A stretch of 43,702 nucleotides of DNA from an uncultured Anaeroplasma sp. (lineage in GTDB: Bacteria; Bacillota_I; Bacilli_A; Acholeplasmatales; Anaeroplasmataceae): positions 1-43,702 of the forward strand of contig CAMEJG010000014.1 of NCBI GenBank assembly GCA_945919465.1, written 5' to 3'. Shown here piece after piece: positions 37,019 through 43,583 of this stretch. The translations under genes and the position numbers were made by a program. Within the stretch, counting starts at the first letter, position 1. The number at the start of each line of letters is the position of its first letter. A model generated the notes under the pieces. The model searched no databases and was not told where the DNA came from. It worked only from the letters and a program-made list of their open reading frames with translations.

Positions 37019-37564
37019 TTATTGTCTTTTGAAGCCTTCCTTAAAAGCATACCCAATAATACTACCTAATGATAAATAAGTATGATTAATCGGATCATAT
37101 ACAATTGCGTTAAGCTTTGATGGATCTATTTCTCCATTACTTAATATACTCTCATCACAATTAACATTTAATATTTTAGCCTTTAAAACCTCATTAGAAT
37201 ATTCAATAGCCTCACATTCTAACGCTAAAGGTAATTCCTTTATTAAAGGAATATTATTTTCTGATTCAATAATAGTAAATCCAGATTTATTTATTTTTTC
37301 TTTATCATCCTTCAATGAAACTAATCCTACATAATCACAGCTAACAACAGTATCAGCTGTACCAATAGATACAGAAAAATAACGATTATTAATAATATTT
37401 TCAGTGGTTTGATGATTACTTAGAGCGATAGAAATCTGATTATAATCAGTTATTCCTCCCCAAGCAGCAGTCATAATATCAGGATTCTTATCCTTATCAT
37501 AGCTTGTAATAACAAGAACTGGCTGTGGATATAAATAATTATTTGCTTTAAATGTCTTTCTCAT
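37019..37564 (-). CDS. Flavin reductase-like (flavoredoxin) FMN-binding protein
   Basis: FMN-binding split-barrel protein of the flavin reductase-like family. The N-terminal PQPVLVITSYDKDKNPDIMT then AAWGGI segment (residues 14-40) binds flavin in this family, and ISIALSNHQTTENIINNRYF follows. The C-terminus has the usual HTYLSLGSIIGYAFKEGFK. Members transfer electrons between NAD(P)H or ferredoxin and small acceptors; the physiological partner is unknown. The length is 181 aa. AGGAGG precedes the ATG. It lies 9 bases after the metal permease gene, so it is transcribed from the Fur-family regulator's promoter and may belong to the same stress response. Confidence 0.9.
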   Translation of the reverse strand: MRKTFKANNYLYPQPVLVITSYDKDKNPDIMTAAWGGITDYNQISIALSNHQTTENIINNRYFSVSIGTADTVVSCDYVGLVSLKDDKEKINKSGFTIIESENNIPLIKELPLALECEAIEYSNEVLKAKILNVNCDESILSNGEIDPSKLNAIVYDPINHTYLSLGSIIGYAFKEGFKRQ

Positions 37565-37573
37565 ATTTTCCTC

Positions 37574-38443
37574 CTAAATTCCAAATAAACTCATTACTCC
37601 CATTACTATATATCCTGTAGCTAAAGAAGCAATAAATAAAATAATAAATATAATTAAAACATCCTTTATATGCTTTCTATTCTTTAATAAATATACAAAT
37701 CCCAACCCGGCATTCATACATAATCCAGAAACTAAAGCTCCAAAAGGAATACCATTGATTAAATACATTTCAGTAATTAATACTGAAGAAGCACAATTTG
37801 GTATTATACCTACTACTGTAGAGACAAATGGGGCTAAATAGCTATTTTGTGCTAAAAAACTAGATAATACCTCTTCTCCTCCAATTGCATAAATAATTAA
37901 TCCAAATATAATATTAACTACTAATACATAAATAAATATTTGTAATGCATGAAGAATTGGATGAACTAAATGCTTATATAATTTAGTATTAGCATAATTA
38001 ATTTTATGATGACAATCATCATATTCTTGTGATAATTCTATAATATCATTATCCTGCCTTTTTATTAATAAATCAACTATAAAGCCTAAAATAAAGCCTA
38101 AAATTAATTTAATCAATAATAATGGTATTACTGAAATAGCATGGTCAAAATCAGTAAGTAAAATAGGTAGAGCTTCATCAGAACAAGCAAAAAATACTGC
38201 AACAACACAGCCTAAGCTAATATGATTCTTTAAATACATATCTGATGCAATTACACTAGTGCCACATTGTGGAATTAAACCACATAAAGAACCAAAAAAC
38301 GGGCTCGCTTTTTTATGATTTTTAAGTAGGCTAGTAATATATTTTTCTACAAAGGAAAAAATTATGTATATTAATAAAGCTAATACAAATACCTTAACTG
38401 AATCAATTAAGGCATCAAGTAATACTTCAAGAATTTCTTCCAT
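37574..38443 (-). CDS. Putative heavy-metal/manganese permease (ArsP_2-like)
   Basis: Polytopic membrane protein, 289 aa, with about eight hydrophobic segments. It resembles the family annotated as putative 10-TM heavy-metal exporter or putative manganese transporter. The two halves are related: GLIPQCGTSVIASDMYLKN near residue 55 and GIIPNCASSVLITEMYLING near 210 are the same motif, with a conserved P-x-C. A cytoplasmic loop with a His/Cys/Asp-rich DDCHHKINY joins them and could bind metal. It overlaps the upstream Fur-family gene by 17 bases, a strong hint that metal regulates it. The metal and direction of transport are unknown. Confidence 0.8.
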   Translation of the reverse strand: MEEILEVLLDALIDSVKVFVLALLIYIIFSFVEKYITSLLKNHKKASPFFGSLCGLIPQCGTSVIASDMYLKNHISLGCVVAVFFACSDEALPILLTDFDHAISVIPLLLIKLILGFILGFIVDLLIKRQDNDIIELSQEYDDCHHKINYANTKLYKHLVHPILHALQIFIYVLVVNIIFGLIIYAIGGEEVLSSFLAQNSYLAPFVSTVVGIIPNCASSVLITEMYLINGIPFGALVSGLCMNAGLGFVYLLKNRKHIKDVLIIFIILFIASLATGYIVMGVMSLFGI

Positions 38444-38819
38444 CAGTCATACACTCCTTACATATTCCAAATATTGTAGTAGATAAATTATCTATTCTAA
38501 ATCCATGATTTTCATAAATATGCTCCATAAAACTATTTGCCTCACTACAGCTTAAATGAATAACATTACCACAGCTTTTACATTTCAAATGTAAATGACT
38601 ATTACAGCCATTTGAATATTGATATTCATAGGTTTCAGTAGTAGGATTATATACTCTTCTAATAGTGCTATTTTTCTCTAATGATTTTAATTGTCTATAG
38701 ATAGTAGTTTTATTCATTTTTTCCTTTAGCTCTTCTACTAATGCGACTGCTGAATAGGTCTTATCTTTATTATTTTCAAAAATATTAATTAATTCTAATT
38801 TATGATCTGTCTTATACAT
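38427..38819 (-). CDS. Fur-family metalloregulator
   Basis: Dimeric metal-sensing repressor, 130 aa. The winged helix occupies residues 1-75 (TYSAVALVEELKEKMNKTTI then YRQLKSLEK is the recognition region). The metal and structural sites follow: SHLHLKCKSCGNVIHL near residue 80 and GICKECM near the C-terminus, two CxxC pairs that bind structural zinc. A histidine sensing site can be inferred but not assigned. It could be Zur-, Fur- or Mur-like. It is the first gene of a three-gene unit (regulator, permease, flavin reductase-like). A perfect palindrome overlaps its -35 box. Confidence 0.92.
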   Translation of the reverse strand: MYKTDHKLELINIFENNKDKTYSAVALVEELKEKMNKTTIYRQLKSLEKNSTIRRVYNPTTETYEYQYSNGCNSHLHLKCKSCGNVIHLSCSEANSFMEHIYENHGFRIDNLSTTIFGICKECMTDGRNS

Positions 38820-39160: not shown

Positions 39161-39865
39161 CTATTTAATTAAATCTTTTATAACCTCAGATGCAATTAAT
39201 AACCCTAGTGATGCAGGTACAAAAGCATTACTTCCAGGAATACTTCTTTTAATAGATTCATCAAAATTATTTTCTATTTTCAAAGGAATTTCCTCTGAAT
39301 ACCCAACCTTAAGCTTTTTTATTCCTCTTTTTTTAAGCTCATATCTCATTACACGAGCTAAAGGATCAACACTAGTTTTATAAATATCCTTTATCATAAA
39401 ACCCTGAGGATTAAGCTTATTACCTGCTCCCATAGAAGAAATAATAGGGGTATTAGTTGAATTTGCTTTAACAACAAGTGCTATTTTAGCACTAACTGTG
39501 TCTACCGCATCAATAACATAATCATATAATGAAAAATCAAATTCATCTTGATTTTCAGGAAGAAAAAAACATTTATAAGCATTAACCCTACAATTAGGAT
39601 TAATAGCTATAATTCTTTTTTTCATCACATCTACCTTATATTCTCCAATAGAATCCATTGTGGCAATAATTTGTCTATTAATATTAGTAATACTTACTGT
39701 ATCATTATCAACAATATCAATACTACCAACACCACATCTAGCTAATGCCTCAACAACATAACCTCCAACACCACCAACACCAAATACAATTACTTTAGAA
39801 TTGTATATTTTTTTCATTGAGTTTTTACCTAATAACATTTCTGTTCTTGAAAATTGATTTTCCAT
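39161..39865 (-). CDS. tcdA: tRNA threonylcarbamoyladenosine dehydratase
   Basis: E1-like ATP-dependent enzyme that cyclises the t6A base of tRNAs to ct6A. It has the adenylate-binding GVGGVGGYVVEALARCGVG (29-47), DNDTVSITNINRQ near 53-65, YDYVIDAVDTVSAK near 115, and SSMGAGNKLNP near 143. The length, 234 aa, is close to the family norm of about 250. The ThiF/MoeB families share the fold, but no thiS/moaD neighbours are present and the SSMGAGNKLNP segment is that of TcdA. It lies 9 bases after the antiporter gene, so the fluoride-responsive promoter may also drive it. Confidence 0.92.
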   Translation of the reverse strand: MENQFSRTEMLLGKNSMKKIYNSKVIVFGVGGVGGYVVEALARCGVGSIDIVDNDTVSITNINRQIIATMDSIGEYKVDVMKKRIIAINPNCRVNAYKCFFLPENQDEFDFSLYDYVIDAVDTVSAKIALVVKANSTNTPIISSMGAGNKLNPQGFMIKDIYKTSVDPLARVMRYELKKRGIKKLKVGYSEEIPLKIENNFDESIKRSIPGSNAFVPASLGLLIASEVIKDLIK

Positions 39866-39874
39866 AAAATCTCC

Positions 39875-41071
39875 TTATTCTAATTCAATATTATCATAGC
39901 TTAAAAGCTTTTTATATGTATTATCCATTAAAATAGCACCAAGTGGTGCAGTAATTAAAATTACAATAATTGCTGCAGTTAAAATTACTTCTCCACAAGC
40001 TAAACCCTCAGCTAAAGCAATACCACCGATAGAAGCTTGAACTGTAGCCTTAGGCAAATAAGAAATAATAATAAAAATTTTTTCTTTTAAATTATAATTT
40101 GTAAATATTAAAGATATTAATACACCAATAGTTCTAAATAATAATGAAATAACAACTAATCCAATAATAATTAGACCTGTTGATGATATTGCATAGCTAA
40201 TATTAATTGAAGCACCAACAAGCACAAATAATAAGATTTCAAAACCCTGCCATAAGCTATTATAGGAGCTTTGAATTTTTTTAGCATCATTTTTATTTTT
40301 TAGAGAAATAATAAGTGCCATTACTATTATACCTAATAATGATGAAATTGCAAAATATGGCTTAACAAATTCTTCTAATGCAATAGATCCAAATGATAAT
40401 GCTAATAATACTATTACTTGAATAATTGTATTAATTTTGAACTTCTTCATTACAAATGAAACACTAAAGCCTAATAATATTCCTAATACTATTCCACTTA
40501 AAATACTAATTGGAATATTAATAATACTTAAAGCATTAAAGCTATTAGTAGTTACTAAATTCTTAAATGAATAAAATAATACAATAACAAAAATATCATC
40601 ACAAGAAGCCCCAGCTAAAATTAATTCAGGTACTCTTTTATTTTTACCATAATTAGTTTCTATTAGCTTAATCATTCTAGGAGCTACAACTGCAGGACTC
40701 ACTGCAGCAAGTACACTTCCTAATAACAAAGCCTCTAATATTGAAATACCTAATAATATTGGTCCAAATATTGCAATTCCTATTATTTCAAATAATGCTG
40801 GTAAAAAACATATTAATATTGCAGGTCGTCCAATTTCTTTTAATCCCTTTAGGTCTAAAGATAAACCTGACCTAGTTAATATGATAACTAAAGCTATTTG
40901 TCTTAAATATGAAGATATTTTTAATAATCCTTCATCAATAATATTAAATAAAGAAGGACTCATTAAAATACCTAAAATTAGGTACCAAATTATTTTTGGT
41001 ATTCTTATTTTTTCTAAAAGAATTCCACCAATTATTCCCACAAAAAATATAATAAATAAGCTTAAAAACAT
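39875..41071 (-). CDS. Cation/proton antiporter, CPA family, fluoride-responsive
   Basis: Integral membrane protein, 398 aa with about 12 hydrophobic helices, of the Na+/H+ exchanger superfamily. The typical opening helix is FLSLFIIFFVGIIGGILLEK and the ion-binding region is LAGASCDDIFVIVLFYS near residue 155, carrying the Asp-Asp pair used by electrogenic exchangers. SVLAAVSPAVVAPRMI near 125 is also family-typical. I chose the ATG at 41071 because AAAGGAG is just upstream; the longer frame begins inside the riboswitch terminator. A fluoride riboswitch precedes it, so its job is probably to help cells survive fluoride stress, either by direct anion or proton movement or by restoring ion balance. 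Confidence 0.88.
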   Translation of the reverse strand: MFLSLFIIFFVGIIGGILLEKIRIPKIIWYLILGILMSPSLFNIIDEGLLKISSYLRQIALVIILTRSGLSLDLKGLKEIGRPAILICFLPALFEIIGIAIFGPILLGISILEALLLGSVLAAVSPAVVAPRMIKLIETNYGKNKRVPELILAGASCDDIFVIVLFYSFKNLVTTNSFNALSIINIPISILSGIVLGILLGFSVSFVMKKFKINTIIQVIVLLALSFGSIALEEFVKPYFAISSLLGIIVMALIISLKNKNDAKKIQSSYNSLWQGFEILLFVLVGASINISYAISSTGLIIIGLVVISLLFRTIGVLISLIFTNYNLKEKIFIIISYLPKATVQASIGGIALAEGLACGEVILTAAIIVILITAPLGAILMDNTYKKLLSYDNIELE

Positions 41072-41091
41072 ATTATTCTCCTTTCTTATAC

Positions 41092-41172
41092 AAAAAAAAG
41101 ACACCTATGGCATTACCATAGACGTCATTAGCTTCACGCGGTTTTCTTTCGAGGGGAGACATCATTCCCAAT
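41092..41172 (-). promoter_or_regulatory. Fluoride riboswitch (crcB motif) with overlapping terminator
   Basis: On the minus strand the aptamer reads GGGAATGATGTCTCCC, a short arm, AACCGC, then GAAGCTAATGACGTCTAT. This is the crcB-motif layout: GATG-containing P1/loop, AACCGC, and a GCTGATGAC-like 3' part forming the pseudoknot. The last part also begins an 11-bp hairpin, GACGTCTATGG with CCATAGGTGTC, followed by eight T. Ligand-stabilised aptamer would block the terminator, so fluoride should switch the gene on. The antiporter start lies 21 bases past the T-run. Confidence 0.85.
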
Positions 41173-41181
41173 TACATATAA

Positions 41182-41210
41182 ATTTTACCACTAGTATTAA
41201 CAATTATCAA
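41182..41210 (-). promoter_or_regulatory. Promoter of the riboswitch transcript
   Basis: TTGATA (41205-41210), 17 bases, TAAAAT (41182-41187) on the minus strand. The -35 box includes the stop codon of cca. The transcript would start just before the aptamer. Confidence 0.75.
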
Positions 41211-42569: not shown

Positions 42570-43583
42570 CTATTTAACAATATATTCTTTAAATATCTTT
42601 ATCATAAGTTCTTCTAATAATTCATTATTAACCATTTTAGGTAAACTAGATTTTTTATAAAGTTCTTCTGATTCTTTTTCAAGATTATTTAACATATCAT
42701 AAAATTCTTTTTTTACTCCACCATCTGCTTCACGAAAATAACCATTTCTAATACTCATAAGAAGATCATGTTCTTCTCTATAAGTATGTAAATTTCCATC
42801 TCTTAAAATTTCATTACACATTAAATATAATCTAATTAAATGCATCATATGCTTATTTAAATGAAGATCATCTTTTTTCTTATTTCTTTGACCTATTGTC
42901 GTGTTAAATGTTCTTAAAACATTAGTCATTTCCTCAATTGAACTTCTTAGATGAGATAAAGGATATCCCTTCAAATTAATATCAATTAACAATTCAGGCT
43001 TATTATTAAAACTTCCTACATAGGTCTTAATTGCATCTTCTGGCATATTAAATTTTCCAATAAAGGAAATATTAGCATTAATAACTGAACGATTAATATG
43101 CTTAAGCTTTTCTTCTTCTGTTAAAGCAACCTCATCCCTAACTAAAGCATTTTCTAATCTATTAAGTTGAGCATGTGCATATCCACCAAAGGTATAATAA
43201 GCTTTTTTTGTTAAAAATAACTTCCTATTATTTAATAATAGCTTGCCAACCTCAGAAACCCAAAAATAATGTTCAGGCTTACAAAATAACATTTCAATGA
43301 TATTAGGATTACATTCTCTAACAAGCTTAATAAACTTAGATAAAGAATAAATAGTAGTATCAGTTTCTGTATCAACAAATTGTTCAAAACTAGATGAAAT
43401 TCCTAAAATATTTTCCAGACTATCTAAGGCAACTCCTCTAATATCAATATCAGAAGAATCTATATTAGTACCATATGAATAGCTTCCTGCAACACATAAA
43501 AATACAATTCTATTTTTAAGATTTTTATTTGTTCTTAAAAAATCATATTCTTTTTTATTTAATACTTCATTAAAATCAATCAT
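42570..43583 (-). CDS. Nucleotidyltransferase of the RlaP family
   Basis: DNA polymerase beta superfamily nucleotidyltransferase of the type annotated as predicted nucleotidyltransferase or RNA-repair pathway DNA polymerase beta-like (RlaP). The catalytic signature is VAGSYSYGTNIDSSDIDIRG (residues 31-50), which keeps the G-S and D-x-D of the fold. EMLFCKPEHYFW near residue 100 and LNKHMMHLIRLYLMC near 240 are conserved in the family. The length is 337 aa. The substrate is unknown; RlaP members are linked to RNA repair or nucleotide addition. It is the upstream partner of cca, another nucleotidyltransferase, 10 bases apart. GGTGAG precedes the ATG. Confidence 0.88.
   Translation of the reverse strand: MIDFNEVLNKKEYDFLRTNKNLKNRIVFLCVAGSYSYGTNIDSSDIDIRGVALDSLENILGISSSFEQFVDTETDTTIYSLSKFIKLVRECNPNIIEMLFCKPEHYFWVSEVGKLLLNNRKLFLTKKAYYTFGGYAHAQLNRLENALVRDEVALTEEEKLKHINRSVINANISFIGKFNMPEDAIKTYVGSFNNKPELLIDINLKGYPLSHLRSSIEEMTNVLRTFNTTIGQRNKKKDDLHLNKHMMHLIRLYLMCNEILRDGNLHTYREEHDLLMSIRNGYFREADGGVKKEFYDMLNNLEKESEELYKKSSLPKMVNNELLEELMIKIFKEYIVK

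What the first reader, a model, noticed from the sequence alone, without database searches (positions are those of the whole stretch)
41092..41210. Fluoride riboswitch drives a cation/proton antiporter (and possibly tcdA)
The crcB-type aptamer overlaps an 11-bp terminator, with its promoter sharing bases with the cca stop codon. The downstream gene is a CPA antiporter, not CrcB/Fluc or CLC-F. Its Asp-Asp pair suggests electrogenic exchange, raising the question whether it moves fluoride or repairs ion balance.
Basis: partly seen in the sequence, partly recalled or inferred. Interest (0 to 1): 0.58.

Follow-up and report, generated by a model that had tools for sequence, protein, structure and literature searches.

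The report
Fluoride riboswitch drives NHA2-like antiporter
A gut bacterium related to Anaeroplasma carries an RNA switch that senses toxic fluoride and turns on an ion exchanger resembling human NHA2; the same pair recurs in many relatives that lack the known fluoride exporters, so the exchanger may be their main defence against fluoride.

Summary
The riboswitch is real: Rfam RF01734, 41.4 bits (cut-off 34), window 41178-41112, minus strand. It overlaps a 12-bp terminator plus U8, lies under a TTGATA-17-TAAAAT promoter that contains the cca stop codon, and is followed by an RBS and a CPA antiporter. The layout is that of a fluoride-ON transcription switch. The genome (97.7% complete) has no CrcB/Fluc and no CLC protein. 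The antiporter is not NhaA/NhaP-like. Its best solved match is mammalian NHA2 (SLC9B2), and it keeps NHA2's ion site, including the arginine that goes with electroneutral exchange, so 'DD means electrogenic' fails. In a 160-genome order survey and a 392-genome phylum survey, 111 of 120 riboswitch genomes have this NHA-type gene (intact, cut or decayed) downstream. None of those 111 has Fluc over cut-off; one has a full CLC-F signature and one a partial one. The pair also occurs in Clostridia and Fusobacteriota. Riboswitch control of 'Na+/H+ antiporters' is published in general. What I did not find in print is that one NHA2-like clade dominates the fluoride response of a lineage almost without known exporters. 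It most likely exchanges cations for protons; direct fluoride export is not excluded and is cheap to test. The tcdA link is local only.

The parts
41205..41210 (-). -35 box TTGATA; contains the TGA stop codon of cca (41207-41209)
   Evidence: ORF coordinates
41182..41187 (-). -10 box TAAAAT, 17-nt spacer, TG before the -10
41112..41178 (-). fluoride riboswitch aptamer (RF01734), 41.4 bits
41159..41163 (-). 5' pseudoknot strand GAUGU
   Evidence: read from sequence; 5 of 5 pairs with 41125-41121
41121..41125 (-). 3' pseudoknot strand ACGUC; also in the 5' arm of the terminator (the competing pairing)
41100..41126 (-). intrinsic terminator hairpin, 12 pairs, overlaps the aptamer's 3' end
41092..41099 (-). 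U8 tract of the terminator
41078..41083 (-). ribosome-binding site AAGGAG
   Evidence: read from sequence
39875..41071 (-). NHA/SLC9B2-like cation/proton antiporter, 398 aa (stop codon included)
   Evidence: PF00999 156 bits; human NHA2 E 1.3e-45; model pLDDT 87.9
39161..39865 (-). ThiF-family protein (TcdA-like, 234 aa), 9 nt downstream; possible read-through only
   Evidence: PF00899 141 bits; neighbourhood not conserved

Best explanation
This is a fluoride-activated transcription-attenuation unit. Without fluoride, RNA polymerase starting at the promoter over the cca stop codon makes a nascent RNA that folds the 12-bp terminator (41126-41100) and stops in U8. With Mg-fluoride, the aptamer's pseudoknot (41163-41159 with 41125-41121) holds the strand the terminator needs, so transcription runs into the antiporter gene. 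The protein is a bacterial NHA (SLC9B2-like, CPA2) elevator exchanger with the complete NHA2 ion site, so it most likely exchanges Na+ (or Li+/K+) for H+ electroneutrally. It would relieve the proton load, or the pH gradient that traps fluoride, when HF enters. In this lineage it is the usual and often the only riboswitch-controlled fluoride-defence gene, in genomes that mostly lack Fluc and CLC-F. Shown here: aptamer, overlapping terminator, gene identity, conserved ion site, recurrence and genomic context. Inferred: fluoride response in vivo, transport substrate and direction, physiological benefit.
For: RF01734 over cut-off. In the window's order, 73 of 160 genomes have RF01734 and 70 of them have the antiporter 30-126 nt downstream on the same strand; G104 (contig end) shows its start and G095 a decayed start. 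In a phylum sample, 70 of 392 genomes have RF01734: 23 in the order, 47 outside, of which 39 of 47 have the NHA-type gene. In 80 riboswitch-negative genomes chosen by me, 7 have the clade; Fisher p 1e-17, not corrected for kinship. A terminator overlaps the aptamer's 3' strand in 66 of 69 order loci and 40 of 44 class loci with the motif. Best PDB match by sequence and by Foldseek is NHA2. Ion-site residues E95, S125, D158, D159, R313 are conserved in 104-106 of 106 linked proteins. Fluc over cut-off in 0 of 160 and 11 of 392. The same pairing occurs in Acetoanaerobium, Peptoclostridium, Cetobacterium and Ilyobacter.
Against: No in-line probing, expression or transport data were found for any of these. 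Plain proton extrusion would raise internal pH and trap more fluoride as a weak acid, so a pure Na+/H+ role is not an obvious defence by itself. Fluc is rare in the phylum anyway (11 of 392), so its absence from NHA-linked genomes is not significant (Fisher p 0.23). Two NHA-linked genomes also carry a full (G233) or partial (G400) CLC-F. Seventeen clade members examined are not riboswitch-linked. Two linked proteins have Asn at D159 and one has Glu at D158.
Confidence: 0.6

Rival explanations
1. The NHA-type protein is itself a fluoride exporter (for example F-/H+ exchange or F- export coupled to Na+), a bacterial solution besides Fluc and CLC-F, and that is why a fluoride riboswitch controls it alone.
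For: It is the dominant riboswitch partner (111 of 120 riboswitch genomes) in genomes almost without Fluc or CLC-F. The window genome has two further PF00999 proteins without any fluoride riboswitch, so ordinary Na+/H+ exchange may be covered. A review lists Tenericutes and Fusobacteria among groups that tend to lack exporters (passage of PMC11139923), and the pair is found in members of both kinds. Within the SLC9B family Drosophila NHA1 was proposed to be an H+-Cl- cotransporter (passage of PMC9174904).
Against: The cation site of NHA2 (D158, D159, S125, E95-R313) is nearly invariant, unlike CLC-F, whose anion signatures changed relative to chloride CLCs. Clade members with and without the riboswitch do not differ clearly at the sites tabulated. 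No CPA protein is known to me (recalled) to carry fluoride.
Confidence: 0.25
2. The antiporter is an accessory stress gene, and an unrecognised exporter elsewhere does the real work; the riboswitch link is general ion homeostasis, as already published for Na+/H+ antiporters.
For: Na+/H+ antiporters are described as the next-most common riboswitch-associated class after exporters (passage of PMC11139923); C. difficile has CLC-F followed by an antiporter under one riboswitch (passage of PMC11477304).
Against: The window genome has a single RF01734 site and no Fluc or CLC gene; in the order, 72 of 73 riboswitch genomes link the switch to this gene or its remains.
Confidence: 0.13
3. The aptamer match is a chance or decayed element with no function.
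For: Promoter-like matches are at chance level in this AT-rich stretch.
Against: E 3.2e-8 over the whole window; terminator overlap and gene order conserved in dozens of loci; pseudoknot strands change on both sides between relatives (GAUGU/ACGUC in 14, GAAGU/ACUUC in 9).
Confidence: 0.02

Closest known systems
Fluoride (crcB-motif) riboswitch, RF01734
   Same: Aptamer, overlapping terminator and inferred ON logic; the terminator overlap is described in the crcB passage of PMC2864571
   Different: Partner gene is an NHA-type CPA antiporter, not Fluc or CLC-F; no experiment on this copy
NHA2 / SLC9B2 (human 7b4l, bison 7p1i)
   Same: About 30% identity over the whole transporter core, same ion-site residues, same fold
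   Different: Bacterial, shorter; the match begins at NHA2 residue 117, so NHA2's N-terminal extension has no counterpart; fluoride-controlled; substrate untested
CLC-F + antiporter operon under one riboswitch in Clostridioides difficile (CD0656-7)
   Same: Fluoride riboswitch with a CPA antiporter in the transcript (passage of PMC11477304)
   Different: There the CLC-F exporter comes first and the antiporter second; here there is no CLC protein in the genome
NapA / NhaA (electrogenic CPA2) and NhaP (CPA1)
   Same: Same superfamily fold for NapA and NhaP; the DD pair is shared with NapA/NhaA
   Different: NapA match is far weaker than NHA2 by sequence (4e-7 against 1e-45); Arg replaces the Lys of electrogenic members

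Membership tests
Fluoride riboswitch RF01734 | Covariance score over the curated gathering threshold, full-length model | tested here: met
   41.4 bits against 34, model 1-64 of 64
Fluoride riboswitch RF01734 | Expression platform: terminator competing with the aptamer's 3' strand | tested here: met
   Terminator 41126-41100 contains pseudoknot strand 41125-41121
Fluoride riboswitch RF01734 | Binds fluoride and raises expression | not testable with these tools
   Needs in-line probing and a reporter
CPA superfamily (PF00999) | Profile score over the gathering threshold | tested here: met
   156 bits against 26.2
NHA (SLC9B2-like) branch of CPA2 | Closest solved relative is NHA2 | tested here: met
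   phmmer 1.3e-45 against 4e-7 for NapA; Foldseek ranks NHA2 1-5; VIA-align Z does not separate NHA2 from NhaP, SOS1 or SLC9C1
NHA (SLC9B2-like) branch of CPA2 | Ion site: two Asp, Ser in place of the acidic residue, Arg in place of Lys, Glu partner of that Arg | tested here: met
   D158/D159, S125, R313, E95 aligned with human D278/D279, S245, R432, E215 (alignment; roles from passages of PMC9174904)
NHA (SLC9B2-like) branch of CPA2 | Electroneutral Na+/Li+-H+ exchange | not testable with these tools
   Transport assay needed
Fluc/CrcB fluoride channel | PF02537 match | tested here: not met
   The antiporter matches PF00999 only; no PF02537 in the genome
CLC-F F-/H+ antiporter | PF00654 match with GNNLI/GMGLI, GREGT/V, GEVTP | tested here: not met
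   No PF00654 in the genome; the antiporter is PF00999
Fluoride exporter in the functional sense | Fluoride efflux, rescue of a fluoride-sensitive strain | not testable with these tools
   Needs liposome flux and complementation

The most novel reading that the evidence does not exclude
A clade of bacterial NHA/SLC9B2-like proteins under fluoride riboswitches is a previously unrecognised fluoride resistance transporter, possibly a direct fluoride exporter unrelated to Fluc and CLC-F, and fills the gap in lineages described as lacking exporters (Mollicutes-like bacteria, Fusobacteriota).
Probability: 0.25. Interest if true: 0.85.

Novelty: new variant of a known kind. Interest (0 to 1): 0.58.

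Why it matters
A recent review names two bacterial fluoride exporter families and treats Na+/H+ antiporters as helpers (PMC11139923, passages). Here the helper is usually the only riboswitch-controlled gene, in genomes that mostly have neither exporter. Either NHA-type exchange alone suffices as fluoride defence, which challenges the weak-acid-trapping picture, or these proteins move fluoride, which would be a new activity for the SLC9 superfamily. One complementation experiment and one liposome assay would decide. It also offers a bacterial model for human NHA2 with a built-in physiological cue.

Tried and rejected
Electrogenic exchange from the DD pair: rejected, because the Lys of electrogenic members is Arg here (passages of PMC8850199). 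tcdA as a conserved regulon member: rejected, 1 of 31 loci. Mutual exclusion of the NHA unit and Fluc: not significant (p 0.23), so not claimed. Hidden Fluc in the order: four sub-threshold PF02537 hits. By those of G120 and G138 fall in AtpI-like and ABC-permease-like frames (my reading by eye), G119 is a decayed Fluc fragment, and G090 was not read. CLC-F hidden among CLCs: of 80 places read, plus four order loci read only and G152's second, the regex for GREG[TV] plus GE[VI][TV]P hit only G233, G313 and G369; G455 and G416 are broken F-type and G400 and G294 partial; a GREGA/GE[IV]VP group is of unknown substrate. CLC places of G208, G368, G443, G462, G481, G289, G250, G402, G429 and G225 were not read (none is an NHA-linked genome). 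Riboswitch hits G428, G330, G284, G315 (23.7-25.7 bits) and G086 (21.4 bits), all below cut-off, stand without an antiporter and are probably chance; they are kept in the denominators. The second sites of G025 and G044 (23-24 bits) and that of G086 were fetched (L096-L098) but not read. My first pseudoknot scan used fixed offsets and found 5 of 5 pairs in only 27 of 67; it is crude. The first terminator scan found 46 of 68, the improved one 66 of 69 plus 40 of 44. The genome-contig scan gave 2 relatives only. A viral contigs pattern scan found nothing. VIA-align gives NhaP, SOS1, SLC9C1 and NHA2 similar high Z, so the fold alone does not place the protein.

Full report
OBSERVATION. A covariance scan of the window with all Rfam families returns a single match at gathering threshold, the fluoride riboswitch RF01734 at 41178-41112 on the minus strand (41.4 bits, cut-off 34, E 3.2e-8). 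It is the only such site in the 2.1-Mb, 97.7% complete genome. The elements around it are, 5' to 3' on the minus strand: -35 TTGATA 41210-41205 (containing the TGA stop codon of cca, 41209-41207), 17 nt, TG, -10 TAAAAT 41187-41182; the aptamer; a 12-bp terminator hairpin 41126-41100 followed by U8 41099-41092; RBS AAGGAG 41083-41078; and ATG 41071. The promoter is plausible by position only, since such matches occur at chance frequency here.

SWITCH LOGIC. The aptamer's pseudoknot pairs GAUGU (41163-41159) with ACGUC (41125-41121), and the latter strand is also in the 5' arm of the terminator. This is the layout of an ON switch: the fluoride-bound aptamer keeps the terminator from forming. Among relatives the commonest pseudoknot types found were GAUGU/ACGUC (14) and GAAGU/ACUUC (9), i.e. 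changes on both sides (a crude scan; 27 of 67 gave five pairs). A terminator overlapping the aptamer's 3' strand was found in 66 of 69 order loci and 40 of 44 class loci that hold the motif.

THE GENE. The downstream protein (39875-41071, 398 aa) is PF00999 (156 bits). Against all PDB sequences its best matches are human and bison NHA2/SLC9B2 (E 1e-45 and 1e-42), with NapA at 4e-7 and NhaP at 1e-3 (the species follow from the entry titles). The AlphaFold model built on 44 relatives (pLDDT 87.9) has NHA2 as Foldseek ranks 1-5. A second aligner gives high and similar Z to NhaP, SOS1, SLC9C1, NapA and NHA2, so the placement rests on sequence. NHA2's ion site is present: E95, V124, S125, D158, D159, R313 correspond to human E215, V244, S245, D278, D279, R432 (numbering read from the alignment). 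NHA2 is reported as electroneutral in spite of its two aspartates, because an arginine stands where electrogenic NapA/NhaA have a lysine (passages of PMC8850199, and PMC9174904).

NO KNOWN EXPORTER. The window genome has no CrcB/Fluc (PF02537) and no CLC (PF00654), although the two searches ring in 10 and 12 of 14 control genomes. It has two further PF00999 proteins, neither under a fluoride riboswitch (single RF01734 site).

RECURRENCE IN THE ORDER. G089's contig has the length of the Anaeroplasma bactoclasticum contig that holds L005, and their antiporters are identical, so genus g1 is Anaeroplasma or near it. Of 160 genomes of the order, 73 have RF01734 (76 sites) and 83 have the antiporter at E 1e-20. 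In 70 of the 73 the antiporter starts 30-126 nt downstream on the same strand. Of the other three, G104 ends at a contig edge but shows the antiporter's start, G095 has a decayed antiporter start, and G086 is a 21-bit hit. A second site in G105 also precedes an antiporter remnant. Fluc over cut-off: 0 of 160. CLC: 25 of 160 (24 over cut-off), none of the 24 loci read with the three CLC-F signatures named in PMC11139923 (passage).

RECURRENCE OUTSIDE THE ORDER. Of 392 phylum genomes at least 90% complete, 70 have RF01734: 23 in the order and 47 outside. Reading downstream of the 47, 39 have the NHA-type gene. These 39 include two cut by contig ends (G252, G493) and some that are truncated or frameshifted (such as G316, G408). 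The other eight are a Fluc pair (G311), CLC-F (G313), a broken CLC-F (G455), one without a recognisable gene (G217) and four sub-threshold hits beside unrelated genes. Together 111 of 120 riboswitch genomes (72 of 73 plus 39 of 47) carry the unit or its remains. In 80 riboswitch-negative genomes outside the order, which I picked by handle number plus three by choice, 7 have the clade, and none of the seven has the riboswitch nearby. Fisher p for 39/47 against 7/80 is 1e-17, uncorrected for kinship. Fluc over cut-off occurs in 11 of 392 and in none of the 62 NHA-linked genomes of that sample, but with 1.7 expected this is not significant (p 0.23). CLC occurs in 74 of 392. Among NHA-linked genomes one (G233) has a full CLC-F signature and one (G400) a partial one. 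So the phylum is poor in known exporters altogether.

OTHER PHYLA. A tblastn against plasmid records found five full-length relatives. I read four (Acetoanaerobium noterae, Peptoclostridium acidaminophilum, Cetobacterium somerae, Ilyobacter polytropus), and all four have a fluoride riboswitch upstream (36.7-56.6 bits). In Peptoclostridium a CBS-domain gene lies between. A review states that species lacking exporters tend to be reduced symbionts, naming Tenericutes, Spirochetes and Fusobacteria (passage); the pair occurs in members of such groups.

CONSERVATION AND TREE. In 106 riboswitch-linked sequences (two of them the same genome), E95 and S125 are invariant, R313 and K341 are present in 105 (one gap each), D158 in 105 and D159 in 104 (two Asn). 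The 17 unlinked members keep the same site apart from one Glu and two Ser. In a quick ML tree of 124 proteins the unlinked members are scattered and at least 13 changes of state are needed, which fits an old unit with repeated loss of the riboswitch.

MECHANISM. Shown: aptamer, platform, gene, conservation. Inferred: fluoride enters as HF, the switch turns on, and the exchanger trades protons for Na+/Li+/K+. This could relieve acidification, or lower the pH gradient that traps fluoride. Pure proton extrusion would by itself increase trapping, which is the main weakness of the exchange reading. Direct fluoride export would explain the dedicated control and the lack of exporters, but the cation site is intact. 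In the same family Drosophila NHA1 was proposed to carry H+ with Cl- (passage of PMC9174904), so anion transport is not unheard of.

LITERATURE. Na+/H+ antiporters as the second riboswitch-associated class are in print (PMC11139923, passages, citing Baker 2012, which is not held). A CLC-F plus antiporter operon in C. difficile is in print (PMC11477304, passages). The searches did not turn up, in listings or in the passages I read, a statement that an NHA2-like clade is the main riboswitch target in exporter-poor lineages or that it carries fluoride. The library holds open-licence papers only, so this is weak evidence of novelty.

VERDICT. It is a new variant of a known kind, with a bold reading that two ordinary assays could settle.

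Noticed in passing
G105 contig C75:9387-9461 (L090); G095 C44:43899-43972 (L091): Fluoride riboswitches followed by only the decayed first codons of the antiporter: the switch outlives its gene. In G105 an intact unit exists elsewhere; in G095 none was found.
   Followed up: partly
G119 C35:7228-7338 (L066): A decayed Fluc fragment (GGFTTFSSF-type core, frame broken) in a genome that has an intact riboswitch-NHA unit: possible replacement of Fluc by the NHA unit.
   Followed up: partly
L270 4485-5033 (Enterobacter cloacae plasmid) and 356 plasmid records, mostly E. coli and Klebsiella: Relatives of the antiporter on plasmids; in the one resistance plasmid viewed a truncated half-length copy lies beside rmtB and qepA between IS26 copies, probably a carried-along fragment.
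   Followed up: no
L267 2311-4134 (Peptoclostridium acidaminophilum): Fluoride riboswitch, then a CBS-domain protein, then the NHA-type antiporter: a possible regulatory subunit.
   Followed up: no
L213, L215-L218, L228-L237, L080: A CLC subgroup with GTN-type/GREGA/GE[IV]VP signatures between chloride CLCs and CLC-F; substrate unclear.
   Followed up: no
L261-L263, L153, L154: NHA-clade genes with in-frame TGA in small genomes (0.7-1.0 Mb), open when TGA is read as Trp; two of the five are riboswitch-linked.
   Followed up: partly
window 42570-43583 (-): RlaP-like nucleotidyltransferase (PF10127) whose frame overlaps the upstream end of the cca ORF; a possible RNA end-processing pair.
   Followed up: no
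window 37019-38819 (-): Fur-family regulator, ArsP_2 10-TM putative heavy-metal exporter and flavin reductase-like gene in a row.
   Followed up: no
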